Assembly (NCBI GenBank): GCA_033977485.1
Contig: CM066988.1
Span: 29,120,501 to 29,184,500 of the forward strand
DNA length: 64,000 nt
Origin: Hydrangea macrophylla
Lineage: Eukaryota > Streptophyta > Magnoliopsida > Cornales > Hydrangeaceae
Direction: 5' to 3'
Shown here: one piece after another, positions 1,204-52,878 of the stretch
Layout of the letters: each line of letters begins with the position of its first letter
How positions within the stretch are numbered: position 1 is the stretch's first letter
Position numbers and translations under genes: made by a program
The notes under the pieces: model-generated
What the model saw: the letters and a program-made list of their open reading frames with translations, nothing else
Database searches by the model: none
What the model was told of the DNA's origin: nothing

Positions 1204-2888
1204 CACGCTCGTTTGGATCTATAGATGCGTTTTTGGAACACTATTTTGATTTGCATGTTGATTTTAGAACTATTTTCGAAACTGCATCGTCACAGATCTG
1301 TTTCTGCAGTGTTATTGCAGCAGTATACAAATCTGTGATTGCATAGGATGCAAGGCAGGTTCGATCGATCGAACATATTTCGATCGATCGAACGTACTGT
1401 TCTCAAGCGATCGAACAGTCTTCGATCGATCGAAACCTTCTGGTATTCGATCGATCGAATGAAGTTAGATCGATCGAGACAGATACTTTGTCAGGTTCTC
1501 TATTTCATAGTTTTTAAGAGTTTTGAAATTAAAAACTTTAATTTTAAAATATTCTGTAAAATTTTCAAAATCATTCTGTGAAACAGAATGTTCAAGCGAT
1601 TGAACAGTGTTCAATCGATCGAAGGTTCGAGCGATCGAACAGTCTTCGATCGATAGAACTGTGACAGAGAAGTAAGATGTTGTTTTAAGTTCTAATTCAG
1701 TATGTAAAGAGTTTATATACTGTGTGAATCAATTAAGTGTTTCAACAGTTACATATATTTGGTATGTATGTATGGATGCGTGTACGACTAACCCTTTTGC
1801 AGCTAGATTAGTCGCTATCTCCCATGGCACCAAATCATTTGAATATTTGTATTTAAATTGTTTGAGATTGGTGCATGTTGTAATTTAAGTTTGGTTTGGT
1901 TTTAAGGCATATGTAAAGGGCGCTGCGACTTCAATCCTACGAAAAGGAAAGTCGCACCGGTTTCCCTAGCCTTTTATTTTGTTGTTATTTCTATTTCCAG
2001 ATAAATTATAAACTTCGAAAGAAGCATAGGACAAATGTAATAGAATTAGAAAATCCATGAAGATGGAGCAAGGAGCCGTTATCCATGAAGATTGAGCTAG
2101 AGGCGATCAAACCAAAAAGGAGGTTCTATAGAGATAGAGCCATGGGAGATAGAGGCATTGTTTGAATTCCTATATTTCATTTTAGTTTTTTGTTTTATGT
2201 GCTTGGTTTGTGATTGGCGTATAATACATTGTTGCATGCACGCAAAACAAGTTTTCTAAAATAAAATTTAAAAACCGTTTTCAACACATTAGTAAACATT
2301 AGATGTTTATGGGAAGTGTGTAGAAACAGATTTTCTCAAAAAGCAAAATCCTTTTTACTAAAACTAGTGAGAGAGGGTCTTATTAATTACACCCACGATC
2401 TTCCATTAACGGTTCACTGTAAGATGAGTGGTGCATTCTGTGTCACCTCGTCAGGGATGATCATTCCATACGGAGGGTGCATTACTCATTGGTTACTAGA
2501 TGTGAACTTCTTTTGATAGGATCAATCAGACGTGTTAGAGCGTGACCACCACACAGAGGCGCTACTTGAGACGGTTGTGATTGGATCCTAGTTAATGGTA
2601 CACACTAGCTAAGCTATGGATAAGGGATCCCACACGGGACATTATTCATAAACTTAGAGATCAAATAGGTTCGGAAGTCATAACTTGTTTTGCAAGAGTT
2701 GCATAGCGGATAAGTTATGATAAATCGAAAGATCGAACATTGACCACCACACGGAGGCTTTAATCTTTGGTTTCGATATTCCGGCGAATTTGTTTTAAAA
2801 TAAGAGTTTTAAAAGGATTCTTTTATTTCAAACTGTCAAAATTCTGATATCCATATTTATTTTGCTTTGATTTTTACAGTAAATCATA
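1204..2888 (+). other. Copia leader (no coding capacity)
   Basis: About 1.7 kb of untranslated leader between primer site and gag start. It contains further TCGATCGA-type palindromes (about 1357-1485 and 1590-1660) and T-rich tracts. The short reading frames here are translations of the palindromes, not genes. A closely related leader begins again at 63337 in the partial Copia element at the window end. Confidence 0.75.
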
Positions 2889-3848
2889 ATGTCTGGATCT
2901 GCATTTAGTCCACTTGCCACCATACTCACTCAAAACAAGTTAACTGGAAACAACTACACTGAATGGAAACGTAACCTTGACATCGTGTTAACTGCGGAGG
3001 ATCACATATATGTCCTCACCACCCCAAGCCCTGAAGAACCCGCGGCAAATGCTTCGGCAGCTGCCAGACGCGAGTTCGACAAATGGAAGAAGTCGAATGG
3101 AATGGCTCGTTGCTATATTCTGGCCTCAATGGCTGGTGTGTTGCAACACCAATTCCAATCGAATGATTCTGCCAGTGACATTATCACATCCCTGAAAAAG
3201 ATGTTTGGGGAGCATGGCAGGCCTGCCAGGCAGGTAGCCATGCAAAAGATAATGAGTGCAAAGATGTCAGAAGGGACTCCAGTCAAGGAACATGTTTTAA
3301 AAATGATTGGTTATTTAAACGAGCTAGAGACCCTAGGTGCCAACATCGATGCACAGACCCAAGTTGATATGATCCTTAATTCGCTGTCGCCTTCATTCGC
3401 TCAATTTAAACTTAACTATAATATGAATCAAATGAATTTTTCAATGAGCGAATTGATGAGTTCTCTTTTGGCAGCGGAAGGGGTGATCAAACCTGGGGTC
3501 AACGTTTTGAACGTTGAGAAAAGCGCTTCCTCTTCCTGATCTGTGCCGAAAGGAAAGAAAGGGAAGAAGAAAGCTAGCACTGGTGGTTCAAGTGTTGGAA
3601 CAGTCCCTAAGATTGCAAAATCAAAGGGAAAAGGTAAGGGCAAAGGGAAGGTGGGTGGCCAAGGCAAAGGAAAGTGTTTCCAATGCGGTGAGAAGGGCCA
3701 CTGGAAGAGGAACTGTCCAGAATTCTTAGCTACAAGAGTTCAAGGTATGATTGAATCACATGTGATTGAAGTAAGTTTTATAACGGATACTTCAAACACT
3801 TGGTGCATTGGTTCTGGTGCGACTAACCATATCTGTAATTCATTGTAG
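2889..3848 (+). pseudogene. gag: Copia gag plus start of protease, interrupted
   Basis: An ATG at 2889 opens a 216-codon frame with the plant Copia gag (UBN2-type) fold: LTGNNYTEWKRNL near the start, then the GTPVKEHVLKM helix region. An in-frame TGA at 3537-3539 breaks it. The same frame then continues through a lysine/glycine-rich stretch and a CCHC zinc knuckle (CFQCGEKGHWKRNC, about 3675-3716) into the aspartic protease, ending at TAG 3846-3848. The protease active site, normally D-S-G in this family, reads G-S-G: the aspartate codon is GGT at 3810-3812. Two nonsense codons and loss of the catalytic aspartate mean this copy cannot make an active polyprotein. Confidence 0.9.
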
Positions 3849-6800
3849 GGGTAGATCAACCAGGAGGTGCAGTGATGGGGAAATCGTACTTACTCTAGGT
3901 TCTAGCGCAACCGTTTCTGCGGTTGCTATAGGAGTCGTAGTTTTAGAATTTCTAGACAATAAAATTTTGATTTTATCAGATGTACTTTACGTCCCTTCAA
4001 TGAGACGTAATTTAATTTCAATTTCTAATTTATCGAATAATGGTTATTCTTTTCATTTTGGAACTGAAGTTGTGATTAAAAGAAATAGTTCTTTTATATG
4101 TTCTGGTGTTAAATCAAATGGTTTGTATGTGATTACTCCCAATATTTCTAAAGACTCTTGCATGGAACTTAATAACTCAGTGGTTACTATACCATCTAAA
4201 AGAAAGAGACCTTCCACTAATCCAACAAGGCTTTGGCATATGAGGCTTGGCCATATCAATCTAAATAGGATTGGCAGACTAGTCAAAGAAGGGGTCTTGG
4301 GCGATTTGGTTCTAGAACCAATGGAAGTCTGCGAGTCTTGTTTAGAGGGTAAGATGACCAAAAGGCCCTTTCCTACAAAGGGAAATAGAACCGATGCATT
4401 GTTGGAATTAGTTCATACTGATGTGTGTGGACCAATAAATATTAGAGCAAGGGGTGGTTATTAGTATTTCATAACATTTACTGATGACCACTCCAGGTAT
4501 GGATATGTGTACCTAATGCAGCACAAGTCTGAAGCCTTTGAAAAGTTCAAAGAGTTTAGGGCTGAAGTGGAGAAGCAATTGGGCACACATATCAAGGCCA
4601 TTCGATCTGATCGAGGTGGCGAGTACCTCTCTAATGAGTTTATTGATTACCTCGTACAGAATGGGATTCTGTCACAGTTGACTGCACCTGGTACGCCTCA
4701 GCAGAACGGTGTAGTGGAGAGAAGGAATCAGACTCTTTTAGACATGACTAGGTCGATGATGAGTTACTCGGAGTTGCCATTATTCCTTTGGGGTTATGCC
4801 TTGGAAACCGCTGCGTACATACTAAATCTAGTACCAAGCAAATCTGTTCCCAGGACACCACGAGAGATGTGGATTGGGCGCAAGCCTTCTTTGCAACATC
4901 TCCGGATATGGGGGTGTCCGGCACATGTGCTGAAAGGAAAGATGAGCAAGTTGGATTCTAGATCGAAAGTATGTTACTTCGTAGGGTATCCAAAGGGTAC
5001 TTATGGATGGTATTTTTATGATCCAAGAGAGCAGAAAGTGTTTGTTAGTACGAATGCTGTTTTCTTGGAAGATGACTATATCATGAACCATAAACCTAAG
5101 GGAAGGATAGATCTTAGAGAGATAGAAGGAGAGCCCTCAGTCCAACCCGTAGTTGATAATGATGTAAATCAAGAAAATACCACTTCTTCACCCATTTCCG
5201 CACCGGTACCTCGTCGTAGTGGGAGGATTATCAGCCAGCCTGATAGATACATGTTCTTAGGAGAAGTTTTTGAAGCTGTCTCCATAGAATCTGAATCTGA
5301 TCCTACCACATACGAAGAGGCAATGACTGATGTAGACTCGGCTCATTGGATTAGAGCTATGAAGGCTGAATTGGAATCTATGGATTCTAATCAGGTCTGG
5401 GATCTTGTAGAGCTTCCAGCCAATATTAAACCCATTGGCTGTAAGTGGGTTTACAAGAGGAAAAGAGGATCTGATGGAAAGGTTGAAACCTTTAAGGCTA
5501 GGCTTGTAGCGAAAGGTTATACTCAAAGGGAGGGCCTTGACTATGAGGAAACCTTCTCGCCGGTAGCCATGCTCAAGTCCATCAGAATACTCTTATCCAT
5601 TGCTGCATGCCTAGATTATGAGATCTGGCAGATGGACGTCAAGACTGCATTCTTGAATGGCAATCTTGAGGAGGACATCTATATGCAACAACCAGAAGGG
5701 TTCATAGCTGGTCGGAAAGGTAACTTGGTATGCAAGTTGCAAAAGTCCATTTATGGGCTTAAGCAAACATCCAGAAGTTGGAACATCCGATTTGACCAAG
5801 CGGTCAAGTCGTTTGGTTTCATACAGAATCTGGATGAACCTTGTGTATACAAGAAGAGTGAAGGGAAAGTGGTGGCCTTTCTTGTGCTTTACGTTGACGA
5901 CATTCTACTCATTGAAAATGATGTAGCGGCGCTATCAATAGTCAAGGTTTGGCTAGCTAGTACTTTCGATATGAAGGATCTAGGAGAGGCGAGCTATATT
6001 CTAGGGATAAAGCTCTTTCGGGATCGCAAGCGAAAACTAATGGGATTATCTCAAGCTGGTTATATCGATAAGGTGCTAACTAGGTTTTCAATGGATAATT
6101 CGAAGAAAGGTTTGTTACCTTTCAGGCATGGTTTAGCGTTCTCCAAGGACCAGTGTCCAAAGACACAGGAGGAGAGGAATCGCATGACAGGAGTTCCCTA
6201 TGCTTCAGCAGTGGGAAGTCTTATGTATGCGATGTTATGCACTAGACCAGATATTTACTTTGCCGTTGGCATGGTTAGCAGATATCAGTCGAATCCAGGT
6301 CCAGAGCACTGGACAGCCGTCAAGCACATTCTTAAGTACTTGAGAAGGACTAAAGATTACATGCTTATGTACGGTGGTAGTGAGTTAATTCCAGTAGGAT
6401 ACACTGACTCAGACTTTATGTCAGATAAAGATTCGAGGAAGTCGACGTCCGGTCATCTCTTTACCTTGGGAGGTGGTGCTGTCAGTTGGAGGAGCATTAA
6501 GCAGAAATGCATTGCAGACTCAACTACAGAAGCTGAGTATGTGGCTGCTTGTGAAGCCTCAAACGAAGCTGTTTGGCTCAAGAAGTTCCTTATGGAGCTC
6601 GAGTTGGTACCAGCGTCGCTGTCACCTATTACGCTTTATTGTGATAATAGTGGGGCAGTGGCTCAGTCTAAGGAGCCAAGGAACCACGGAAAGGGAAAGC
6701 ACGTAGAGCGGAAATATCATCTTATCCGAGATATTGTTCAACGTGGAGATGTGACTGTCACCAAGATTGCCACCGCTGACAATCTTGCTGATCCGTTTAC

Positions 6801-6870
6801 AAAGGCCTTGCCACAGAAGGTTTTTTATCGTCATCTAGATAGTCTAGGTCTCAGATGTAATCCTGTATGA
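3849..6870 (+). pseudogene. pol: Copia pol: protease end, integrase, reverse transcriptase, RNase H
   Basis: The protein continues in another frame just after 3848, so a frameshift lies at about 3845-3870. Order visible: rest of protease, GAG-pre-integrase domain (LWHMRLGHINLNRIGRL and a CESCLEGK zinc-finger end), integrase core with aspartates in HTDVCGP and RSDRGGEY and glutamate in GVVERRN, reverse transcriptase with the YVDD box ([12 protein letters not shown]), and RNase H ([24 protein letters not shown]). An in-frame TAG at 4462-4464 cuts the integrase. From 4507 to 6870 the frame is fully open for 787 codons. The domain order integrase then RT identifies Copia. With the gag lesions, this copy would need protein supplied by relatives. 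Confidence 0.92.
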
Positions 6871-11414: not shown

Positions 11415-12121
11415 TTTTATTTTATTTTTATAACTTTGAGCATTTTCGGTATTTGCAAATTAAGAAGGGAGGTATCTGTAAATTTTGTACTCTAGAGAGG
11501 TGTGTATAATGCAAATCCAAATCTCAAGGGAGGTCAGTGTACTTTTGCAAATAGAGGGGAGGTCCGTGTAATTTTACCATAACTCAGGGGAGACCCTTTT
11601 AATGACAAAAAAAAATTTGTCAGTAAAGGGCTAATTAGATTTATTTATTGTTGTGAAATTTTAGTGACTAAAATACCACATTTAAAACTTTAGGATCTAA
11701 AGTACCAAACTATCTAAACTTCAAGGACGAAAAGTGCAATTTACCCAAATAATGTAAAATAAAATGGGCAATGACCAAGTAAATGACGTGACATTAAGTT
11801 TTAAATAATCTAATAAATTATCTAAATTAAAGATGGGTTTTGGGTAACTGAGGAGAAGTTTTTGTGTACTTTCTAGGTAGTGCTTATGTGACGCCCCATA
11901 TTCAATGAGTTAGCACTACACAGGATTCTTGAGCCATTTAAATTTTTTGTAGTGGGTTCAATTGTACATGTAACGCGCTTCTATTGGGTACGGGACACCA
12001 AGTGGCATGCCACGTGGTATCTCGGGATATCCAAAAATTTCTCGTAGCACAGAGGTCTCTATAGGGTAAGTGTCATAAATCGGCATAGAGGAAAAAAGTA
12101 ATATTTGGGGCACTAAAAATC
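11415..12121. other. Gene-free segment, old repeat fragments
   Basis: Repeated phrases such as GGGAGGT...GTAATTTT (11470-11570), another GACAAAAAAA/TTTGTC hairpin near 11603-11625, and a TGTGACGCCCC stretch at about 11887 that resembles the outer end of a Gypsy LTR but cannot be followed further. No gene seen. Confidence 0.5.
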
Positions 12122-12220
12122 CCACTAACTCTTACACCTACACTCTATCTCTCTCCTAGTGGCACTATGAGGTGCAGTGCCACTAGGAGAGAAATAAAGT
12201 GTAGGTGTAAGTGTTAGTGG
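12122..12220. repeat. 99-bp near-perfect palindrome (foldback element)
   Basis: The arms 12122-12165 and 12177-12220 are complementary over 44 bp with three mismatches, around an 11-nt loop. Outer ends read CCACTAAC / GTTAGTGG. It could form a long RNA hairpin if transcribed. No coding content; most likely a small MITE. Confidence 0.8.
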
Positions 12221-12261
12221 AATTAATTAGTTTCCTAACATTGTTGACATATATATGTGTA

Positions 12262-12270
12262 TATATATAT
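12262..12270 (+). other. Candidate target-site duplication of MULE, left copy
   Basis: TATATATAT directly before the TIR start CAAAAATGATACAC; the same 9 bases follow the right TIR at 19928-19936. Nine bp is the usual MULE duplication length, but the sequence is simple, so chance cannot be excluded. Confidence 0.55.
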
Positions 12271-12583
12271 CAAAAATGATACACAAACACACCAAAACAC
12301 CCACTGAAACACCCTCAGGCCCTTCTAAGCAAAATTTTTAAAATTTTGCTGGGACCCACACCCAAATCAGTCCCTCAAATCCCAAAATCAGTCCCTTTTC
12401 CCTCCATTTCTCCTTTTCCCCCAATCACACCCGAGAACCCCAGCCCCCCCCCCCCCCCCCCCCCCCCCCTTGCCCCCCTCCCGTCACCGACGACGCCTTG
12501 CCCGGAACGTCCACTGCAGGTCGCCGGAGCGCCGTCCACTGCAGGTCGCCGCCGCCGCCGCCGGCTCCTTCTTGGTAAGTCTT

Positions 12584-12665
<82 letters not shown>

Positions 12666-13048
12666 ATCTCTCATTCTTTGTGGACTCAAAGTAAGGCATC
12701 TATCTCTCATTCTTTGATGTTTTATATCAAGCCCATTTCATGTTTGATATCTCACAGTATGAATTTAATATGCCCATTTCATGTTTGAATTTAATATGCC
12801 CATTTCATGTTTGATATCTCACAGTAAGGCATCTAACTCACAGTATGAATTTAGTATGCCCATTTCATGTTTGATATCTCATTCTATCCTTTTGCTATTT
12901 GCTTCCATTTGTACACCCACCATTTGTAAGTGAAGGTAAGTGAAAAGTAATAGGATAAATGTCTTACTGATAAAAAAAATTTCTCATTTGTAAACCCACC
13001 ATTTTTAAGTGAAAGTGATCCATTATGTCCTAGTGTTTTAAAATACTC
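12271..13048 (+). repeat. Left terminal inverted repeat of MULE
   Basis: Starts CAAAAATGATACAC and includes ACACCCTCAGGCCCTTCT, the AAAATTTT hairpin and GGGACCCACACCC, all found inverted at the right end. It then has a C-rich and GC-rich stretch (12430-12570), GT and CT microsatellites (12586-12662), and repeats of GCCCATTTCATGTTTGA (12729-12880), also mirrored. It ends near TAGTGTTTTAAAATACT. The TIR probably carries promoter and untranslated first exon: the GC-rich block ends in a good donor GGTAAGT at 12574-12580. Confidence 0.85.
12574..12580 (+). promoter_or_regulatory. Candidate 5'-UTR splice donor inside left TIR
   Basis: GGTAAGT follows a GC-rich exon-like block. A matching AG acceptor lies at 14445-14446, three bases before the transposase ATG, so an intron of about 1.87 kb could remove the whole repeat array. 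The right TIR has the mirrored GGTAAGT on the minus strand (about 19646-19652). Inference only. Confidence 0.4.
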
Positions 13049-13103
13049 ACAAATTCTGCCCTAGTGTTTTAAAAAAGGGGGCAAAATGGTGGGTGATGGT
13101 CCA

Positions 13104-14403
13104 AACAGATAATATTTTCTGTTTACACTAACAGATAATATTATTTGTCAACTTTAAACCACTATAACTTTATCAATTCTTGGGCTTTTTGGGTGATTTT
13201 TTTTTTCATTTCATGTATTTCTTTAAGATCTACGCATCGGACTTGAAAGTTGTACAAAAAATAAGCAATTTGGAGCTTCGTTTTTCATTTTTATCTTAGC
13301 TGTGACACAAACAGATAATATTATCTGTTTACACTAACAGATAATATTATTTGTCAACTTTAAACCACCATAACTTTGTCAATTCTTGGGCTTTTTGGGT
13401 GATTTTTTTTTTCAATTCATGTATTTATTTGAGATCTACGCATTGGACTTGAAAGTTGTACAAAAAAAAGCAATTTGGAGCTTCGTTTTTCATTTTTATC
13501 TTAGCTGTGACACAAACAGATAATATTATCTGTTTACACTAACAGATAATATTATTTGTCAACTTTAAACCACCATAACTTTGTCAATTCTTGGGCTTTT
13601 TGGGTGATTTTTTTTTTCAATTCATGTATTTATTTGAGATCTACGCATTGGACTTGAAAGTTGTACAAAAAAAAGCAATTTGGAGCTTCGTTTTTCATTT
13701 TTATCTTAGTTGTGACACAAACAGATAATATTATCTGTTTACACTAACAGATAATATTATTTGTCAACTTTAAACCACCATAACTTTGTCAATTCTTGGG
13801 CTTTTTGGGTGATTTTTTTTTTTCAATTCATGTATTTATTTGAGATCTACGCATTGGACTTGAAAGTTGTACAAAAAAAAAAAGCAATTTGGAGCTTCGT
13901 TTTTCATTTTTATCTTAGCTGTGACACAAACAGATAATATTATCTGTTTACACTAACAGATAATATTATTTGTCAACTTTAAACCACCATAACTTTGTCA
14001 ATTCTTGGGCTTTTTGGGTGATTTTTTTTTTCAATTCATGTATTTATTTGAGATCTACGCATTGGACTTGAAAGTTGTACAAAAAAAAGCAATTTGGAGC
14101 TTCGTTTTTCATTTTTATCTTAGCTGTGACACAAACAGATAATATTATCTGTTTACACTAACAGATAATATTATTTGTCAACTTTAAACCACCATAACTT
14201 TGTCAATTCTTGGGCTTTTTGGGTGATTTTTTTTTTTCAATTCATGTATTTATTTGAGATCTACGCATTGGACTTGAAAGTTGTACAAAAAAAAAAAGCA
14301 ATTTGGAGCTTCGTTTTTCATTTTTATCTTAGCTGTGACACAAACAGATAATATTATCTGTTTACACTAACAGATAATATTATTTGTCAACTTTAAACCA
14401 CCA
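13104..14403 (+). repeat. Left subterminal array: six ~206-bp repeats plus a partial
   Basis: Units start near 13104 (diverged), 13310, 13515, 13720, 13929, 14134 and 14343 (partial), spaced 205-209 bp. Each opens with the palindrome AACAGATAATATTATCTGTT, then TACACTA, then a second nearly identical half (ACAGATAATATTATTTGT). The rest of the unit is near-identical between copies and differs mainly in the length of its T and A runs. The array stops 45 bp before the transposase start codon. Confidence 0.92.
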
Positions 14404-14448
14404 TATAAATCCGTATGAATTGATGATTGTATTATATATTGTATAGAA

Positions 14449-16943
14449 ATGGAAGAAGAAGTTTCAAGTGGTTCGGTAAGCATTCATGAGGATATTATCG
14501 AAATTGATCATGACAAGGAGCAAATAAGAGACGTAGAAAACCAAATTGATGAGCCGAAAAAGGGGATGGAGTTTGATTCTTTGGATGAGCTGATGGTGTT
14601 TTATGCCGAATATGCTAGAGATAAAGGTTTTGCTGTGGCTAAAAGAAGCTCTACAAAGAAGGAAGGGGTCGTCAGATATGTGGCATTTCAGTGTACTCGT
14701 GGTGGTACGTTAAGGAGTAGATCAACTAACCCGTTAAATGTGCGCCCAACCGCAAAGATGGATTGCAAAGAAAAGCTTAGGGCATTTCATTGTCCCAATG
14801 GAAAGTGGTCTGTGACATCAGTTGAACTTTCTCATAACCATGAAATGAGTCCAGGTAAATCTCGATATTTTAAATGCAATCGGTTGTTGCAACCACATGT
14901 GAAAAAGAGACTAATGTTGAGTGATAAAGCTGGAATTAGAATAAACAAGAATTTTAATTCGTTAGTTATTGAGGCGGGGGGGCATGAGAATCTGTCATTT
15001 ACTGAAAAAGATGTAAGAAACTACATCAATAAAGTTAGGCGTTTACAACTTGGGGAAGGTGATGCTAATGCAATGCACAACTACTTTTTGAGAATGCAAT
15101 CTAATAATTCTGACTTCTTCTACATGATGGATTTGGATGAAAAGGGTCGCCTAAAGAATGTTTTTTGGGCTGATGCAAGGAGTAGGGCAGTATACAAAGA
15201 ATTTGGTGACGTGGTTACGTTTGATACTACATATTTGGTTAATAAATATGACATGCCATTTGTGCCTTTCATAGGGGTGAACCATCATGGGCAGTCAGTA
15301 TTGCTAGGGTGTGGGTTGATCTCAAGTGAGGATACTGAGACCTTTACGTGGTTATTTCAGTCTTGGCTTACATGTATGTCTGATTGTCCGCCCAGTGCAA
15401 TAATAACAGATCAAGACAGAGCCAATGCACGGCACCGATGGTGCTTATGGCATATCATGAAAAAGTTACCTGAAAAATTGAAAGGATACAAAGAATATGA
15501 ATCGATCAAATTCATGTTGCAAAATGCTGTTTATGATTCATTAACCATTCAAGAATTTGAAGGTGCTTGGGGCAATTTCATCGAAAAATATCAGCTAGAA
15601 AGTAATGAATGGTTACTTGGTTTGTATGAGGAGAGGCATCGATGGGTACCAGCTTTTGTGAGGGATATTTTCTGGGCAGGAATGTCAACCACTCAGCGAA
15701 GTGAAAGTATGCACGCTTTCTTTGATGGCTACATCAACTCCAAGACAACTTTGAAGCAATTTGTGGAACAATATGAGAATGTCTTGGCAAAAAAAGTAGA
15801 GAATGAAAAACAAGAAGACTTCAATTCATATAACTCATCCTACCCATGTGCTACGCCTTTAGGGATGGAGAAGCAATTTCAAAGTGTTTACACACGGGCG
15901 AAATATAAAGAGTTTCAAAACGAGTTATTTGGGAAGCTTTGTTGTAATTTGCTTTTACTTAAAGAAGATGTTGGATTTAGAGAATATGAAGTACGTGAAC
16001 GGGTTCGTTTTGGAGATGGTCATCGGTCTGCAACTTTCAAGCTAATTTTTTTTTATAATACACAGGAAGTGAATTGTAATTGCCGATTGTTTGAGTTCAG
16101 AGGAATAATGTGTAGGCATCAACTTATGGTATACAATGATATGGACATTTATGATGAAGTACCCGCCAAGTACATTCTACAAAGTTGGAGTAAGAATATC
16201 AAAAGGAGACACACCAAGATTCGGATCAGTTATGACAACTGGGCAGACAGACCAGAGGCACGACGTTATGATAAAATGTGTAATATTTTCTATGAGTTGG
16301 GTGAAGTGGCAGCGGAATCTGAAGCTTGGTGTGATGAGGTGATTGCACAAATACAACAAATGAAAGAGGGATACAAAGAGAAGGCTGCAATTTGTGGAAG
16401 CAATATACCCATTTTTACTAATCATTCGAGTAAATCAACTTCACATGGAGATGGTATCGTACTAACAAAAGAGAGCACGAATATACTTGATCCATTTGTT
16501 ACTCGTAGTAAGGGGCGACCGCCAAGTAAAAGGAAAGTGGGCAATGTTGAGAAAGCAGTTAAGAAACAATCAAAAGCCAAAAACAAAAAAACAAAAGCAT
16601 CGACAAGTGCAAAGGTTTGACAATATTAAAATATTAATATTAATGTTTTTCATTAAAATAAGGTCACTGTAATATTTACTTTGCATTTTGCATTTATTTT
16701 TAGGGCTATGACGAGAACAGGAACGAGCATTGTACACAAGAGAGCCGAATGACCATTCAAGGAAGTCTTACATTTCAACCGCCAAATGTGGGAATAGACT
16801 CAAGTCTTGCATTTCAAGATCCGACTGTGGGAATAGACACAAGTCTTGCATTTCAAGAGCCGAATGTAGGAATGTCCCCAAGTCTTGCATTTCATCCAAA
16901 TTTGGGAATGAGAGGAAATTTTGATTATTATGACCTTATGTGA
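14449..16943 (+). CDS. FAR1/FHY3-type MULE transposase, probably two coding exons
   Basis: ATG at 14449 opens 723 codons to TGA 16618-16620. Domains: FAR1 DNA-binding domain (about residues 40-135; Cys82, Cys106, His129, His131), MULE transposase domain (about 255-420) with FDTTY (Asp259), TDQD (Asp321/323) and QRSES (Glu419), then a SWIM zinc finger (Cys543, Cys545, Cys555, His557) and a basic tail. A better gene model removes 16615-16703 (GT...TTTTTAG, 89 bp, phase 0), extending the protein in frame through 16704-16943 by 79 residues with four repeats of SLAFQxPNVGID type. Between TDQD and RHRWCLWH there are only four residues where relatives usually have about fourteen, so a ~10-residue in-frame deletion sits beside the active site. 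The alternative, a domesticated FAR1-related host gene, is unlikely because the gene lies between matching TIRs. Confidence 0.88.
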
Positions 16944-17096
16944 TGGGTTCATGAATTTGACTATGACTATATTTGATGGTTTGAAAGCATTTAGTATGAC
17001 TTTATTTGATGGTTTGGAAGCGTTTAGTATGACTTTATTTGATGTCTGTTGGCTGTGCTATGGTGTTTAGCAGTAAGTTTGGTTGTGGTTGTGCTT

Positions 17097-17709
17097 ATGA
17101 AAAACAAAGGTCCAAATTGCTTTTTTTTTTTTTTTTTTTACAACTTTCAAGTCCGATGCGTAGATCTTAAAGAAATACATGAAATGATAAAAAAAAATCA
17201 TCCAAAAAGCCCAAGAATTGATAAAGTTATAGTGGTTTAAAGTTGACAAATAATATTATCTGTTAGTGTAAACAGATAATATTATCTGTTTGTGTCACAG
17301 CTAAGATAGAAATGAAAAACGCAGCTCCAAATTGCTTTTTTTTTGTACAACTTTCAAGTCCAATGCGTAGATCTCAAATAAATACATGAATTCAAAAAAA
17401 AAAATCACCCAAAAAGCCCAAGAATTGACAAAGTTATGGTGGTTTGAAGTTGACAAATAATATTATCTGTTAGTGTAAACAGATAATATTATCTGTTTGT
17501 GTCACAGCTAAGATAAAAATGAAAAACGAAGCTCCAAATTGCTTTTTTTTGTACAACTTTAAAGTCCAATGCGTAGATCTCAAATAAATACATGAATTCA
17601 AAAAAAAAAATCACCCAAAAAGCCCAAGAATTGACAAAGTTATGATGGTTTAAAGTTGACAAATAATATAATCTGTTACTGTAAACAGATAATATTATCT
17701 GTTTGTAAC
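17097..17709 (-). repeat. Inner right repeat block (about 2.5-3 inverted ~206-bp units)
   Basis: Inverted copies of the left-array unit, with the 20-bp palindrome at 17271-17290, 17478-17497 and 17684-17703. The block separates the 3' ends of the two convergent genes. Confidence 0.9.
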
Positions 17710-17924
17710 ATGACACTTGCAACAAAAAACCCAAATTCATAACATGACTATTATAGAAAACATTTAGGCACAAATCCTTACACAAATGTTCATAGATTCC
17801 TTACATGCCAAATTACAAAAAAAAAAAAACTAAAATAAAGAGAAGTTCTCAAACGGAAAGAAACGACATTTGTTTTCCTAATAAAAACATCAAAGCACAT
17901 ATGACTAGCATTTTCAAAAAGAGC

Positions 17925-18348
17925 TTATTGCCCATTTTTTTTTATTTCAACACATATTTGCTTTTCTGCATGTTGTATCGTTGTCTTCACTTCATGTCGA
18001 AAGTCTTTCATTTCGTTGACATCACACTTTGATGAAGTTGCATCACCCTCAACGTCGTCTTTACTGTTGTCTTCGCACCATAGAAAGAAATTGCATGGTT
18101 GTTTGTGATCCTATGATTGAAACAAGTTGTTAATATAAAAAAACGTTATAAATAACAACATATATTTAGTAATGCAATCCATTCCAAGAATTAAGCCTTA
18201 CTAGATATCCCGGGCATGAGTAAAACAAACAATCCTTGCTCCATTCTTTTTGCGAAGTTTTCAATATTGCTACTCTTCCACACCAACACTTCTTTAATGG
18301 CACTTTCACACAATTCAATGGAGAGGCTTTATTACTTGATGAAGACAT
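17925..18348 (-). CDS. Small GRF zinc-finger protein, two exons, inside MULE
   Basis: Minus-strand gene model: exon 1 is 18348-18202 (49 codons from ATG MSSSSNKASP), the intron is 18201-18111 (91 bp, GTAAGG...CATAG, phase 0), and exon 2 is 18110-17925 ending in TAA, giving 110 aa. The spliced product has a classical GRF zinc finger: CWCG at residues 21-24, FYSCP with Cys45, then after the exon joint PCNFFLW with Cys55 followed by CED. The C-terminal half is charged (a possible coiled coil). GRF fingers bind nucleic acids in other proteins; the role here is unknown. The start codon lies 76 bp inside the outer right repeat array, mirroring the transposase start at the left, so it likely uses the right TIR promoter. 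Short stand-alone GRF proteins are common in plant genomes. The joint across the finger strongly supports the intron. Confidence 0.75.
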
Positions 18349-18423
18349 TGTTCTATCAAAATACATCACTAGCACAATTAATCGTAAGACATTTTCTGGA
18401 AGACGATGTAATGGCTTATACTA

Positions 18424-19180
18424 GTTTTTTTGTACAACTTTCAAGTCCGATGCGTAGATCTCAAATAAATGCATGAATTGGAAAAAAAAAATCACCCAAA
18501 AAGCCCAAGAATTGACAAAGTTATGGTGGTTTAAAGTTGACAAATAATATTATCTGTTAGTGTAAACAGATAATATTATCTGTTTGTGTCACAGCTAAGA
18601 TAAAAATGAAAAACGAAGCTCCAAATTGCTTTTTTTTTTGTACAACTTTCAAGTCCAATGCGTAGATCTCAAATAAATACATGAATTGAAAAAAAAAAAT
18701 CACCCAAAAAGCCCAAGAATTGACAAAGTTATGGTGGTTTAAAGTTGACAAATAATATTATCTGTTAGTGTAAACAGATAATATTATCTGTTTGTGTCAC
18801 AGCTAAGATAAAAGTGAAAAACGAAGCTCCAAATTGCTTTTTTTTGTACAACTTTCAAGTCCAATGCGTAGATCTCAAATAAATACATGAATTCAAAAAA
18901 AAAATCACCCAAAAAGCCCAAGAATTGACAAAGTTATGGTGGTTTAAAGTTGACAAATAATATTATCTGTTAGTGTAAACAGATAATATTATCTGTTTGT
19001 GTCACAGCTAAGATAAAAATGAAAAACGAAGCTCCAAATTGCTTTTTTTTTTGTACAACTTTCAAGTCCGATGCGTAGATCTTAAAGAAATACATGAAAT
19101 GAAAAAAAAAATCACCCAAAAAGCCCAAGAATTGATAAAGTTATAGTGGTTTAAAGTTGACAAATAATATTATCTGTTAG
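18424..19180 (-). repeat. Outer right repeat block (about 3.5 inverted ~206-bp units)
   Basis: Mirror image of the left array, with palindromes at 18565-18584, 18773-18792 and 18978-18997 and a half site near 19157-19180 that runs directly into the TIR sequence TATTTTAAAACACTAGG. Confidence 0.9.
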
Positions 19181-19604
19181 TATTTTAAAACACTAGGACA
19201 GAATGGATCACTTTCACTTACAAATGGTGGGTTTACAAATGAGAAATTTTTTTTATCAGTAAGACATTTTTCCTATTACTTTTCACTTACAAATGGTGGG
19301 TTTGCAAATGGAAGCAAATAGCAAAAGGATAGAATGAGATATCAAACATGAAATGGGCATACTAAATTCATACTGTGAGTTAGATGCCTTACTGTGAGAT
19401 ATCAAACATGAAATGGGCATATTAAATTCAAACATGAAATGGGCATATTAAATTCAAACATGAAATGGACATATTAAATTCATACTGTGAGATATCAAAC
19501 ATGAAAGATTTACATGTTAGTAAATCTTATACAATCTGGCCACACATAGCCCAATAAATTATCAAGAGTTGTGAAACAAAAGATTTACATGTTAGTAACA
19601 TATC

Positions 19605-19647
<43 letters not shown>

Positions 19648-19927
19648 CTTACCCATCGGCGGTGTCTTCGACGATGACCTGCAGGCGACGACGATCCGGC
19701 GTCGGATCCGGCGAAGGTTCTCGACGGTGAGGGGAGGGGGGCTGGGAATCGCAGGGAGGGGGGGCTCTCGGGTCTGATTTGGGGGTGAGGTTGTTTGGAG
19801 GGAAAAGAAGAGATTTAGGGATTTGGGGTTTTATTTGGGTGTGGGTCCCAGCAAAATTTTAAAAATTTTGCTTAGAAGGGCCTGAGGGTGTTTTAGTGGG
19901 TGGTTTGGTGTGTGTGTATCATTTTTG
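19181..19927 (-). repeat. Right terminal inverted repeat of MULE
   Basis: Inverted counterpart of 12271-13048 with the same order of blocks: CACTAGGACAGAATGG, the AAATGGTGGGTTT phrases, GAAATGGGCAT repeats, (GA)n at 19609-19643, a GC-rich exon-like block (19650-19790), GGTGTGGGTCCCAGC, the AAAATTTT hairpin, AGAAGGGCCTGAGGGTG, and the terminus GTATCATTTTTG. Confidence 0.85.
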
Positions 19928-19936
19928 TATATATAT
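19928..19936 (+). other. Candidate target-site duplication of MULE, right copy
   Basis: TATATATAT, identical to 12262-12270. The flanking DNA is AT-repeat rich, so the evidence is modest. Confidence 0.55.
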
Positions 19937-24416: not shown

Positions 24417-27400
24417 TCAAGGTCGAGGACTTTCAGGAAGAAGAGTAATGTCCCGGAAAACCTGCAACCTATTTCTCCTCATCAATTTCACACCATTCCC
24501 TGAAGTACCCTCCTTCTCATTTCCCATCAAAGAGCTATATTCAAAGTTCAAGGCCTTCTTTGGGAATGGTGATGAACAAAAGTTCTCTGGCTTCTCATCC
24601 TGCTGACCAAAACACAAAGAACGTCTCACCGTTCGGTTCACTGTTGAATCATCGACTTGAGGTTGAGTATAATACCCATCTTTTGAATTGAGAGATTCAA
24701 TCTTTCGGGTTAGATTCTCAATAGGATCCAGAGGAGTAGGAGTTTGGTGAATGATGTTGGAATCCAAATTTTCATTATTAAATTCCTCTTCACCCTTCAA
24801 ACCATCAGAAAAGCTGTGTGGAGTTTGGTGAAAATATGGTGGTTCATGAGATGGGTATGAGTACGACAATTCCAATTCATCTTCTTCGACCAGATCTGCC
24901 CAACTCTTCTTGCTCCTACACATGGATAGTTCCTTAAGCTGGACTTGGTTACTATCCTGATCTCCAACAAGACAAGTCTGTTCTGCTCTTGCATAATCAA
25001 CAGCTGCTGATGATTCAACTGAAAAGTTACTCTCATGCCCCCCACTAATCGTTTTGCAGTCTCCACTAACGATGGGATTTCTCCAGTCTTGACTAGTCTT
25101 TTCATTAGTGGAATCAAGATTCTGGCTCACAAATGGTGGCCCATTTGCAAATGATAATTTGCGATTACAACTAGTGTTTTCAATTCCCTCTGATGCCCTT
25201 CTACGATCCATATTATTGAATGACCATGAAGATCTCCTTGGTTGTGTAAATGGAACTTTTAGAACACCTCTAGGAGGAAATGGAGAAGCATACGTCTTCT
25301 TGCATGAAGAACCTACTCTTATTTGATCCGTACTGTGCCAATTATCCTTCCGATTGCTGCCAATTTCAGCCCTCATTTCATATGCATTTTCTGTATAACA
25401 TCCTTTCTTCAACTTATTGACATAGGAAGTCCCAGGAGAAGAATGCGAAACATTTCTCGATCCAAACGGTGCAGTTCTCAAGTTTCCTTTGCCAGATCCT
25501 CCATTCTGTTCATCCAACAGAGCGGTTTCCTCACCTTGGTCATCTGATGACCTTCTTGAGACCCAAATACCGGAACGCACATAATTCTCATTTCCACTAA
25601 TGGGGGAAGGAACTTCTTTCTGGTTTTGGTGAGCTAGTGATATGAAAGGTGTTCGATTTCCCTTACTGATCTCTTCTTCCCTTGAAATGGGCTCTATTGG
25701 TGACTTTGATTCTAGTTCATCTAGGATCTGAATAGCACGCTCAAAAGATTTAGCATATGACTCATCCATCTGTTCATCATTAGATGAAGACCTTATGGTG
25801 TGAAGCAAAATTTTCGCTTCTGTAATCTTGTTCATGAACATCAAGCAGATTGCTAGATTGCATTGCTTGTTTTTGTCTGGCTCAAGAGAGAGTGCTTTTC
25901 TGTTTCAAAAAATAATAATTTTTTCTCACTAAAAACCGTCCCTTTTTTTAAGGCAAATCATCATATACACGAGTGTATGTATTTCAGTGGATGAACATAC
26001 CTATAAAGCTCTTCAGCAGATTTAAAACTATTCTGTTGCATGTAAGCCCAAGCCAAGTTCCCCAATAGCCTGCACACCCAGAAGGATAAAAGATAGATAA
26101 ATGTACAAAAAGAAGAAAATAATTAGTTACAAGAGAAAATAAATTCAGTATCAACCTTGAGTACTCTTGTTCAATTGTGATTTGAATCTTCTTCCCTTGA
26201 GATCTGGCCGCCTTTGTTCTCTTCCCACCAAAAGTTATACCTTCTTCGATGTGCTTCAGTTTGAGTTGAAGTATTCCGATCTGTTCTTCAATCCTACCAG
26301 ATCTCTGCAATAACACGCAACTGCACGCTCATACATGTGTTTTAATCATTAAATATGTAAAGAGAGCATAAAAAGACGTATAGCATATAGTTATAACAGA
26401 AACTTGTGATCCATCCCGATTCAAAAATTTGTCACTATAGCACAGTTATCTTGCTCTCTGTAAACAAACTTGAATTGACCTCTCAGGCAAAGTCAGGGAC
26501 TCCTAAAGTTCTGTATGCTTACAGCTTCAGTCTCATTAAAGACAATTTGTACCTTCAAGTTTAGTCTTAGGGGTAAATGGAATGACGTGTTCAAATTGCA
26601 TTCTCACCCATTCTAATTACGTTTTACTCTTCATCTTCGACTTATTTCATAGAATGCATTCTAATACAACTTTTGCTTGTTCGGAAAGGCGTCTTAATTG
26701 CTTCCGTTTTCAAGTTGAAGATGATGTTTTGGCATAGGATGACATGGGTTGGGGTTGATGGAACCCCATGCTCCTCAACTTCTTTAGTAAATAAATCCAA
26801 CTTCATGTTTCAATCTCCATCTCAACCCCTCCTTTGTTCTCCTTGTATATCAATGTTAATACATGTACTACGAAAAAAAAGTCACTCATGTACTAAACGG
26901 AGCACTACTTTCATTGTATCGAACAAACCATTTGTAAACTTGACCGCAAATGATTGTAAGAGAATTGGTATGATTTACAATTGTATATATACTACAAGTC
27001 CCTAGAACCGTAATGAAGTAAATTCATTGCAGATGCTACAAAAAAAACAACAGAAATGATTGTTGAAGAATTGGTATAATGTAAAGTTAATGTATAATCT
27101 ATTGAAGTCTCTAAAAATATCCACAGAACCAACATTTCCAATATCTCCAGTACATATATACCCATAGAAGAAGTATCAGTTATTTTATGATCATTTCAGT
27201 CTTAATTTTGCAGTCTTGAACAAAACAATACAGTTATGCATTTATTACTCCCTCCGTCCCAATTTAAGAGTTCTTTATTCCATTGTAGAATATCCCAATT
27301 TACATGTCCTCTTGGAAAGTCAAAGTACTTTAACTAGAGACTCTAAAAAAATTTCCTTTACTATAAAAAAAAAACTCACATTTTCTGGAATTGTAAACTT

Positions 27401-47202: not shown

Positions 47203-48310
47203 TTAGGTGGAGGGATAGCTGGGCTCATCTAACTCGATGTGCTCAGCTTCTGGTAGGAATTTCTCCAAGAACAGTTTTAACCTTTGGCCATTAACCTTGA
47301 AACAATCATTGTTCTTGGGATTTATAAGCTCAACGGCACCATGTGGAAAAACAGATTTAACAAAGAATGGACCTGTCCACCGGGATCGAAGCTTACCTGG
47401 AAAAAGGTGGAGGCGAGAGTCGTACAGCAAGACTTTCTGCCCTGGCTCGAATGATTTACGAAAAATTGTTCTATCGTGACGAGCCTTCAACCTTTCCTTG
47501 TGTAGTTTAGCATTGTCGTATGCATCTCGACGTATTTCTTCCAGTTCAGCTAACTGGAGCTTCCGGAGATGACCTCCTTCTTTAATGTCAAAGTTCAATG
47601 AGCATGTTGCCCAATATGCTTTATGCTCGATTTCGACAGGAAGGTGACATGCCTTGCCGTACACTAACCTGTACGGAGACATCCCCAGATTTGTCTTATA
47701 AGTATTGCGGTATGCCCATAGAGCATCAGTCAGTTTATATGCCCAGTCTTTTCTGTTGAAACTAACCGTTTTTTTTAGTATATGCTTGATTTCACGGTTA
47801 GCCAATTCTGCCTGCCCGTTAGTCAGTGGGTGGTATGCGAGAGTGATCTTATGATTGACCCCATATTTCTTGAGGAGTGATTCTAAAGCCCTGTTGCAAA
47901 AATGCTTGCCTTGGTCACTTATTAATGCTTTCGGGGTTTCGAAACGCGACAGAATATTTTCCTTAAGGAAGGACATTACTGTTTTGTGGTCATTGTGTCT
48001 CGTCGGTATCGTTTCCACCCATTTTGATACATACTCCACAGCTAGGAGTATGTATTCACAGTTATTTGATTTTGGAAACGGGCCCATGAAGTCTATGCCC
48101 CAACAATCAAATATTTTAATTGTGATGATGGGAGTTAAGGGCATAGAATTTCTTTTTGAAATTATACCTAGCTTTTGACAGCGTTGGCACGATTTGCAAA
48201 AAGAGTAGGCATCCTTAAACACGGTGGGCCAATAGAATCCGCTGTGTAATACTTTTTGTGCGGTCTTTTGCAAAGTGAAATGGCCTCCGCAGGCTTCAGA
48301 ATGACAAGAT
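47203..48310 (-). pseudogene. pol: Athila integrase
   Basis: Minus strand. The zinc-binding HHCC part starts just upstream of 48273 (CHSEACGGHF...CKSCQRCQK). The core has GIDFMGPFP, SDQGKHFCN and GQAELANREIK supplying the D, D, E residues, followed by the C-terminal GPF-type region (LRSRWTGPFFVKSVFPHGAVEL). From 48273 to the stop at 47203 the frame is open for 356 codons. A frameshift near 48295-48315 separates it from RNase H, so the polyprotein is broken. Confidence 0.9.
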
Positions 48311-48311
48311 G

Positions 48312-50131
48312 CTAAATTACAGTTATATCCTCATTCGGGATGCAATGTCTGATGACCTGATCAGCACAATACTTGAATAAGTAAGGGTCATCGAAAAAGA
48401 AATAACGTGCGAACAAAAGGAACCGTTTCTTATCTTGAATCGACCAATGACTTGGGGTTTCACCCGTAACAAGATAATTTACTATATCCGCATACCAAGG
48501 CAAACTAGAAATAGTCATCAGTTGCTCATCTGGGAATTTATATTTAATTGGTATGGGTCCAGTGTTGTCAGTAAATGTCAACCGAGACAAATGGTCGGCG
48601 ACCACATTCTCTACTCCTTTTTTATCCTTGATTGTGATATCGAATTCTTGGAGTAGGAGTATCCAACGGATAAGCCTTTGCTTCGTGTCTTTCTTAGATA
48701 GCAGGTACTTGAGGGCCGAGTGGTCTGTAAAACAGACGATTGGAGACCCTATCAGATATGACCTGAATTTATCTAGAGCGAAGACTATTGCCAGTAACTC
48801 TTTTTCGGTAGTCATATAGTTCATTTGAGCTTTGTTAAGTGTGCGGCTGGCATAGTATATTATATAAGGCTTATTATCCTTCCTCTGTCCTAGGACTGCC
48901 CCAATGGCATAGTCACTAGCATCGTACATCAGTTCAAATGGCAAACTCCAATCGGGTGCCTGTATCATCGGTTCGGAGGTGAGGTGTTCCTTTAGTGCGT
49001 CAAAAGATGTTTGACAGTTGTCCGACCACTCGAATGGTGTGTCTTTGACTAAGAGTTGGCACAGTGGTCGGGAGATCGCACTAAAGTTTTGGATAAAGCG
49101 GCGATAAAATCCCGCGTGTCCCAGAAAAGAGCGGATATCTTTAACTATACGGGGGACAGTAGGTTCGAGATTATATCAATTTTTGCTTTATCAACTTGGA
49201 TACCCTCATCAGAAATAGTGTGACCGAGGAAAATTCCCTTGGTCACCATGAAGTGACACTTTTCCCAGTTTAATACTAGGTGTTTGTCCTCGCATCTCGC
49301 TAACACTTTCTCAAGGTTTTCTAGGCAGTTATTGAAACTATGGCCAAACATTGAGAAGTCGTCCATGAACACATCGAGTATTTGTTCGACCATGTCACTG
49401 AATATACTCAACACGCATCGCTGAAAGGTAGCCGGAGCATTGCATAAGCCGAAGGGCATACGACGATAGGCGAATGTACCGAACAGACAAGTGAAGGTCG
49501 TTTTCTCCTGATCTTCAGGAGCAATTTCGATTTGGTTGTAGCCACTATATCCGTCCAAGTAGCAATAGTATTTATGACCCGCCACTCGCTCTAGCATTTG
49601 ATCCATGAATGGTAATGGAAAATGGTCTTTCCGGGTCACAATATTCAATTTTCGGTAATCAATACACATCCGCCATCCGATGGGGATGCATGTTGGTACC
49701 AATTCGCCGTCTTTATTTGGGATGACTGTTATACCTGCCTTTTTGGGCACCACTTGGGTTGGACTAACCCAAGGGCTATCAGAAATAGGATATATAATCC
49801 CAACATCAAGTAGTTTTAATACGTCCTTTTTAACTACCTCTTGCATGTTGGGATTCAAACGCCTTTGTATTTGTCATGAAGGCTTAGCGTTTTCTTCCAA
49901 GTATATTTTATGAGTGCACACAGATGGGCTTATGCCTTTGAGGTCGACAATCGTCCATCCTAATTCTCCCTTATGTTGTTTTAACAGTTGGATTAACTTA
50001 CTCTCTTGTTCAGGATTTAATGTAGATGAAATTATGACAGGGTAAGTCTTTTCAGTCCCTAGGAAGGCATATTTGAACTCTATTGGAAGCTCCTTTAACT
50101 CCAGATCGGGAAACTGAAAATTGGAAGGCAT
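48312..50131 (-). pseudogene. pol: Athila reverse transcriptase and RNase H
   Basis: Minus strand. From 50131 the pol frame carries the linker (ELGWTIVDLKGISPSVCTHKI), a TGA at 49874-49876, then RT (SPWVSPTQVVPKKAGITV, CIDYRKLN, FGTFAYRRMPFGLCNAPATFQRC and the FMDD box VFMDDFSMFGHS). A frameshift at about 49150-49165 moves the reading to the RNase H frame ([46 protein letters not shown]). Order RT, RNase H, integrase is that of Gypsy elements. Confidence 0.9.
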
Positions 50132-50280
50132 GACTAGTTTTGTTTTTGGAGGTAGTGGTTAATATGGTGTTACCCACATGCATTCAGCTCTGTCCTCCTC
50201 TTTCGTCTCCATCATGAGGCAAGTGTGATTAAAGTAGCATCCAATGGGGTAGAATCGTTAGGTTAATAGATCGCATCAAA

Positions 50281-52767: not shown

Positions 52768-52878
52768 AAAAGGAAAGATCCTAAGTAGTTTTAATCTAAA
52801 GAATAAGAGACAAAAGAACAAAAAAAATGGAAAGAGGTAAAGATAGATTGAGGTAATCTAAGCGTTAGCTTGTCGCTT

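What the first reader, a model, noticed from the sequence alone, without database searches (positions are those of the whole stretch)
12262..19936. MULE with a convergent FAR1-type transposase gene and a GRF zinc-finger gene
Seen: long TIRs, an open FAR1/MULE/SWIM transposase on the plus strand, and a separate two-exon GRF-finger gene on the minus strand, both inside one TIR pair and each starting beside its own repeat array. Known: maize MuDR has two convergent genes driven from its TIRs (mudrA transposase, mudrB helper). FAR1-type MULEs are usually described with transposase only, and I do not know of a GRF protein as the partner gene. Inference: the GRF protein may be a helper for integration, TIR binding or escape from silencing.
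Basis: partly seen in the sequence, partly recalled or inferred. Interest (0 to 1): 0.88.

Follow-up and report, generated by a model that had tools for sequence, protein, structure and literature searches.

The report
Jumping gene with zinc-finger partner gene
A plant jumping gene carries, next to its own transposase, a second small zinc-finger gene pointing the other way; the same pair turns up in many separate copies in the genome and the second gene is kept intact by selection, so it probably helps the jumping gene rather than riding along, although one related group of copies seems to lack it.

Summary
A 7,657-bp Mutator-like element (12271-19927, flanked by TATATATAT) has a FAR1/MULE/SWIM transposase on + and a two-exon GRF-type zinc-ribbon gene on -, convergent, inside one long-TIR pair. 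In the host's own genome I fetched 20 more GRF loci: 14 show both TIR ends with GRF between them, 13 of these with a 9/9 or 8/9 target duplication. Anchored on the transposase instead, 35 of 62 copies have a GRF match within 6 kb downstream, 35 of 35 convergent, 0 of 62 upstream (shifted control mean 0.058). GRF dN/dS between subfamilies is about 0.25. So GRF is an element gene under purifying selection, not cargo or flank. Corrections: the window copy looks dead (10 residues missing beside the second catalytic Asp; GRF frame cut short by an A9 run); in-phase relatives encode 132-135 aa with a hydrophobic C-terminal tail, and the G-R of the GRF motif is replaced. Against an indispensable helper: 15 of 16 transposases in the 80-90% identity band have no GRF match nearby. 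A census by TIRs and empty sites could not be done. Helper function is inferred, not shown.

The parts
12262..12270 (.). left target-site duplication TATATATAT
   Evidence: identical 9 bp at the other end; lies in a TA repeat, so ambiguous here; other copies have 9/9 duplications that are not TA repeats
12271..13054 (+). left terminal inverted repeat, GC-rich middle diverged
   Evidence: local alignment with the right end; outer end CAAAAATGATACAC
13102..14405 (+). left array, 6.3 copies of an about 205-bp repeat holding AACAGATAATATTATCTGTT palindromes
14449..16620 (+). FAR1/MULE/SWIM transposase gene, 723 aa open frame; lacks 10 residues after the second catalytic Asp
16704..16943 (+). possible last exon of the transposase (801 aa if spliced 16614/16704)
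   Evidence: GT-AG prediction; conserved at 92.9-99.2% over its full length in the 13 of 20 fetched loci that hold it whole; no transcript data
17129..17706 (-). inner right array, 2.8 copies of the same repeat
17925..18110 (-). GRF gene exon 2 (stop at 17925-17927 because of an A9 run; in-phase copies read on into a hydrophobic tail)
18202..18348 (-). GRF gene exon 1 (start ATG at 18348)
18425..19181 (-). outer right array, 3.7 copies of the same repeat
19172..19927 (-). right terminal inverted repeat
19928..19936 (.). right target-site duplication TATATATAT

Best explanation
A two-gene FAR1-type (Jittery-like) Mutator-like element. Shown: gene 1 is the transposase; gene 2, convergent and starting at the other end beside its own array, encodes a small GRF-type zinc-ribbon protein; the pair is inherited together across subfamilies whose transposases differ by up to about a third, and gene 2 is under purifying selection. 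Inferred: the GRF protein is an accessory (helper) factor of the element, like maize mudrB in position only. Most likely it binds nucleic acid or the transposase through the zinc ribbon and raises the success of transposition or expression; the hydrophobic tail of in-phase copies suggests a membrane attachment. The window copy itself is probably a damaged, non-autonomous member.
For: 14 of 20 fetched GRF loci have both TIR ends around the GRF gene; 11 with 9/9 and 2 with 8/9 target duplications, the sequences of which differ from one another (ends sought with up to 2 mismatches, best pair taken, shift of 1 allowed). Transposase-anchored: 35 of 62 copies with GRF within 6 kb downstream, 35 of 35 convergent, 0 of 62 upstream, shift control mean 0.058 and at most 2 in 500 rounds. 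GRF dN/dS 0.25 on average for 28 copies against L053 at dS 0.53; bootstrap 0.14-0.56 for L014-L053; 0.17 in codons 1-63. No indel in 306 exon columns against 10 events in the intron (the A-run near the end of exon 2, where indels do occur, was left out). L050 has both ends, an open 733-aa transposase and an open in-phase GRF.
Against: 15 of 16 transposases in the 80-90% identity band have no GRF match within 6 kb, also not in the nearly exhaustive exon-1 search (150 of 177 candidates scored), and five of them have stop-free matches (C5:104434765, C17:102359481, C18:19939177, C14:96209842, C1:73540351). 12 of 28 close GRF copies are out of the tail phase. Pfam score only just over the cut-off and G-R of the motif replaced. 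No functional data.
Confidence: 0.68

Rival explanations
1. Captured host cargo: an ancestor picked up a host GRF gene, as Pack-MULEs do, and it is carried along without use to the element.
For: MULEs often capture genes (recalled; also stated in PMC6446971, passages); one band of related transposases has lost or never had the gene; many close copies are out of the tail phase.
Against: dN/dS about 0.25 between subfamilies, no exon indels outside the A-run, GT-AG borders kept in 28 of 28 copies, fixed convergent order in 35 of 35 pairs over transposase identities of 66-100%.
Confidence: 0.17
2. Anti-silencing factor that reads the arrays, as VANC proteins do for VANDAL elements: the GRF protein recognises the palindromic tandem repeats next to both genes and frees the element from DNA methylation.
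For: Arrays of palindromes sit beside the starts of both genes and turn over fast: 18 of 20 loci have the 205-bp type, L045 and L046 an unrelated 21-bp type; VANC targets are short motifs in tandem repeats that change between related elements (PMC5735166, passages).
Against: The GRF protein hardly differs (97 of 102 residues, L014 against L016 and L017) where the arrays are wholly different, unlike VANC and its targets; no sequence likeness to VANC was tested.
Confidence: 0.12
3. Chance neighbour: a host GRF gene, or a nested element, happens to lie inside this copy.
For: In the window GRF lies between two stretches of array.
Against: Same order and orientation in independent insertions with different duplications and in diverged subfamilies; 0.058 expected against 35 seen.
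Confidence: 0.02

Closest known systems
Jittery clade of Mutator-like elements (group 36 of Dupeyron et al. 2019, PMC6446971; passages)
   Same: FAR1 domain at the N terminus, MULE core, SWIM near the C terminus, TIRs (Jittery domains in PMC9569675, passages)
   Different: The group is tabled with 1 ORF in dicots and monocots and TIRs of 39-292 bp; here there is a second, convergent gene and about 790-bp TIRs with palindromic arrays
Maize MuDR with mudrA and mudrB
   Same: Two convergent genes inside one TIR pair; second protein without known biochemistry
   Different: FAR1-type transposase; the second gene is a GRF zinc ribbon. Likeness to MURB was not tested here; mudrB as needed for integration is from PMC6446971 (passages)
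VANDAL/Hiun elements with VANB and VANC (PMC5735166, passages)
   Same: Extra element genes and tandem repeats with short motifs that turn over fast
   Different: Different transposase clade; GRF protein hardly changes where the arrays are swapped; no anti-silencing shown
Barley Abermu with ORF2 and reverse ORFR (PMC9168764, passages)
   Same: MULE with a further gene in reverse orientation
   Different: MURA-like transposase; the paper text has no mention of GRF or FAR1 by the term search
GRF zinc fingers of NEIL3, APE2 and TOP3A
   Same: PF06839; profile match to the NEIL3 fingers at E 0.0035; [quoted passage not shown]
   Different: Here a small stand-alone protein with a hydrophobic tail; the G-R of the motif is (D/N)-C, while the F is kept; G-R is said to be less conserved than F in the family (PMC9369019, passages)

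Membership tests
Mutator-like elements (MULE) | MULE transposase domain | tested here: met
   PF10551, 92.2 bits, cut-off 27.6
Mutator-like elements (MULE) | Target-site duplication of 8-11 bp | tested here: met
   9/9 in the window and 11 of 14 loci with both ends, 8/9 in 2, none in 1
Mutator-like elements (MULE) | Long terminal inverted repeats | tested here: met
   about 790 bp
Jittery/FAR1-type MULE | FAR1 domain before, SWIM after the MULE core | tested here: met
   FAR1 51-134, MULE 255-339, SWIM 541-562
Jittery/FAR1-type MULE | Single ORF (as tabled in PMC6446971) | tested here: not met
   second gene inherited with it; no tree with Jittery itself was made
MuDR with mudrB | Second gene homologous to mudrB | not tested
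   no MURB sequence was compared; PF06839 is the only Pfam family over its cut-off
VANDAL with VANC | Second protein evolves with its target arrays | tested here: not met
   GRF 97 of 102 residues alike where arrays are unrelated; two loci only
GRF zinc finger (PF06839) | Score over the curated cut-off | tested here: met
   27.5 (window), 26.8 and 29.3 bits, cut-off 25.9: a narrow pass
GRF zinc finger (PF06839) | Gly-Arg of the GRxF motif | tested here: not met
   (D/N)-C in the copies read, F kept
Pack-MULE cargo | Captured gene without a kept element function | tested here: inconclusive
   dN/dS about 0.25 between subfamilies speaks against it; no functional test, and one transposase band lacks the gene

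The most novel reading that the evidence does not exclude
The element encodes a tail-anchored zinc-ribbon protein that ties transposon ends or the transposase to a membrane such as the nuclear envelope or ER: a kind of transposition helper that I know of for no cut-and-paste transposon, in a family that swaps its palindromic end arrays wholesale while keeping both proteins.
Probability: 0.2. Interest if true: 0.82.

Novelty: new variant of a known kind. Interest (0 to 1): 0.62.

Why it matters
FAR1-type MULEs gave rise to the FHY3/FAR1 transcription factors of plants and are tabled as one-gene elements. A second gene kept by selection would change what counts as an autonomous copy in this clade and adds a new kind of protein to the unsolved question of what MULE partner proteins do. 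It may also explain some of the small GRF proteins annotated in plants as transposon genes (not tested here). Because copies with and without GRF, and with two unrelated kinds of end array, sit in one genome, the roles of helper and arrays can be tested by comparison.

Tried and rejected
Rejected: chance neighbour or host flank. Rejected: GRF as indispensable for every member of the clade. Weakened: GRF as specific reader of the arrays.

Led nowhere: two GRF searches of the 5.8-billion protein set found no relative (no candidate sharing three words; 705 candidates, none at E <= 0.01), so the pair could not be followed into other plants. A second transposase query (P0010) returned mostly the same clade; its 13 new copies had no listed GRF within 20 kb, weak because one search scored 150 of 555 candidates. 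The TIR census (window 12271-12390, or 12262-12400) did not complete. IQ-TREE was run but printed no omega; only my own counts are used.

Literature: searches. 'GRF zinc finger' with 'Mutator-like': 0 papers. With 'transposable element' and 'plant': 2; of PMC6293580 I saw passages (lists of methylated genes), PMC5413045 was not opened. The five-term search gave PMC8774480, where GRF is a program (passages). PMC2528002 (passages) has no GRF. All ten papers opened were seen as passages only. Most subscription papers and Repbase are not in the library, so 'not described' means these searches.

Rows dropped before counts: 68 transposase rows were merged into 62 copies. One counted positive lies 5.9 kb away. 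GRF copies with partial matches (L012, L028, L041) and the duplicate loci were left out of the 28 aligned.
Full report
What is there. The window lies in an unnamed plant genome of 2.22 Gb in 19 contigs (G000:C7:29120501-29184500); the best transposase matches are from Camellia and Castanea at 60-62% identity. It has about 790-bp terminal inverted repeats with a diverged middle and, inside them, about 205-bp tandem repeats inverted between the two ends: 6.3 copies before the transposase, 2.8 between the genes, 3.7 beyond the GRF start. Inverted matches reach 423 nt at 100%. The 23-nt left end is found once in the window and in none of 100 shuffles (the right end differs by a 2-nt gap).

The two genes. 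The transposase (14449-16620, 723 aa; 801 aa with a possible last exon) has FAR1, MULE and SWIM domains. Its frame is open, but it lacks 10 residues that all 19 aligned relatives have, right after D321; D259, D321 and E419 are invariant there and fit the spacing of the DDE residues given for Jittery (PMC9569675, passages), so their role is inferred. The 9 fetched loci whose alignment covers the site all have the 30 nt. The GRF gene has two exons with GT-AG borders and 110 aa and passes PF06839 by a small margin. Its frame ends early at an A9 run: of 28 aligned copies, 16 are in the phase that reads on into a hydrophobic tail, 10 share the window's phase, 2 have a third. Subfamily B (L053) has a tail of other sequence and like hydrophobicity (19-residue mean 1.74 against 1.91). 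The ancestral protein was thus probably a zinc ribbon, an acidic linker and a hydrophobic C-terminal anchor; the window copy is damaged in both genes.

Does the GRF gene belong to the element? GRF-anchored: the genome gave 173 matches (150 of 360 candidates scored). I fetched 20 loci of 10 kb (L031-L050). In 14 of 20 both ends were found, with the GRF gene between them; 11 have a 9/9 duplication, 2 an 8/9, and L036 none (up to 2 mismatches in the ends, best pair taken, ends allowed to move by one base, which was needed for L049). Seven of the 20 align to the whole transposase (L035, L038, L039, L044, L046, L047, L050); the others have pieces or none. As these loci were chosen for GRF, they do not tell how often GRF is missing. 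L050 has both ends, an open 733-aa transposase and an open in-phase GRF.

Transposase-anchored: 68 rows, 62 copies. With the GRF places of three searches, 35 of 62 have a GRF match within 6 kb downstream, 35 of 35 on the other strand, 33 of them 0.75-2.05 kb away; 0 of 62 have one within 6 kb upstream; copies moved by 0.05-5 Mb give a mean of 0.058 and at most 2 in 500 rounds. By transposase identity to the window: 91-100%, 13 of 14; 80-90%, 1 of 16; 70-79%, 20 of 29; 60-69%, 1 of 3. Eleven partners (transposase identity 66-76%) were found through PF06839, which matches them in one piece across the place where the window type has its intron. Each search scores at most 150 candidates, so positives are lower bounds. 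For the two-exon type, the exon-1 search was nearly exhaustive (150 of 177 candidates scored; 114 rows at E <= 1e-4 used) and shows none near the 80-90% band except beside C16:111094633; the nearest other is 38 kb off. So that band lacks the two-exon gene, though five of its members have stop-free transposase matches. This is the strongest result against an indispensable helper. Loss, replacement by another gene, or use of GRF made by siblings are all open.

Selection. Among the 28 close copies there are 22 synonymous, 35 non-synonymous and 4 stop changes, a ratio of 0.40-0.59 depending on the transition bias assumed; no indel in 306 exon columns against 10 events in the intron (the A-run at the end of exon 2, where indels do occur, was left out). 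The transposase gives 0.47-0.67 by the same count over 8 copies. Dead copies pull both up. Between subfamilies, where changes passed through mobile ancestors, GRF gives dS 0.53, dN 0.134, ratio 0.25 (28 copies against L053, 97 codons); bootstrap 0.14-0.56 for L014-L053; codons 1-63 give 0.17, the linker 0.38-0.49.

The arrays. In 18 of 20 loci the AACAGATAATATTATCTGTT palindrome is present 9 or more times; in L045 and L046 it is absent and a 21-bp repeat with GAGAAATTTCTC stands instead, in L046 just before the start of each gene. Yet the transposase is 96.5% identical in DNA (L050 against L046) and the GRF protein agrees in 97 of 102 residues. Fast turnover of motif arrays is what Hosaka et al. 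report for VANC targets (PMC5735166, passages), but here the small protein does not change with the arrays.

How it most likely works. Shown: two convergent genes, each starting by an array, inherited together, both constrained. Inferred: the GRF protein is an accessory factor. [quoted passage not shown] APE2 likewise from memory), which could fit cut or unpaired transposon ends. But G-R of the motif is replaced by (D/N)-C while the F and the cysteines stay, so contact with the transposase or another protein is as likely. The tail points to a membrane; nothing was tested. I put about 0.95 on 'element gene under selection' and 0.6-0.7 on 'helper'.

Known or new. The Jittery group is tabled with one ORF and FAR1 at the N terminus, and the word GRF does not occur in that paper's main text (PMC6446971, passages). 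Searches for GRF with Mutator-like elements found no description in a library without most subscription papers and Repbase. I file it as a new variant of a known kind.

Noticed in passing
L045, L046 against the other 18 fetched loci: The palindromic arrays at the element's ends are of two unrelated kinds that exclude each other, while transposase and GRF genes stay nearly the same.
   Followed up: partly
window 17925-17950 and the same place in 28 GRF copies: An A8/A9/A10 run (in some copies broken by a C) decides whether the GRF protein gets its hydrophobic tail: 16, 10 and 2 copies. Slippage could in principle make both forms from one gene.
   Followed up: partly
L038 (C14:79034871-79044870): Two GRF genes in tandem about 1.5 kb apart in one arm of one element.
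   Followed up: no
G000, whole genome: 555 first-look candidates for PF06839, 150 scored and 147 matched, many in groups of near-equal score on different chromosomes and without a transposase from my lists nearby: further GRF families that may be transposon-borne.
   Followed up: no
window 24417-25904 (-): A 495-aa open frame that from memory resembles plant MS5/TDM1-type TPR proteins, a likely host gene about 4.5 kb from the element.
   Followed up: no
window 2883-6870 (+) and 47203-52857 (-): Open frames that from memory look like copia-type and Ty3/gypsy-type retrotransposon proteins.
   Followed up: no
window 12120-12230: An imperfect inverted repeat (CACTAGGAGAG and its complement in the middle) directly left of the element, perhaps a small non-autonomous element.
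   Followed up: no
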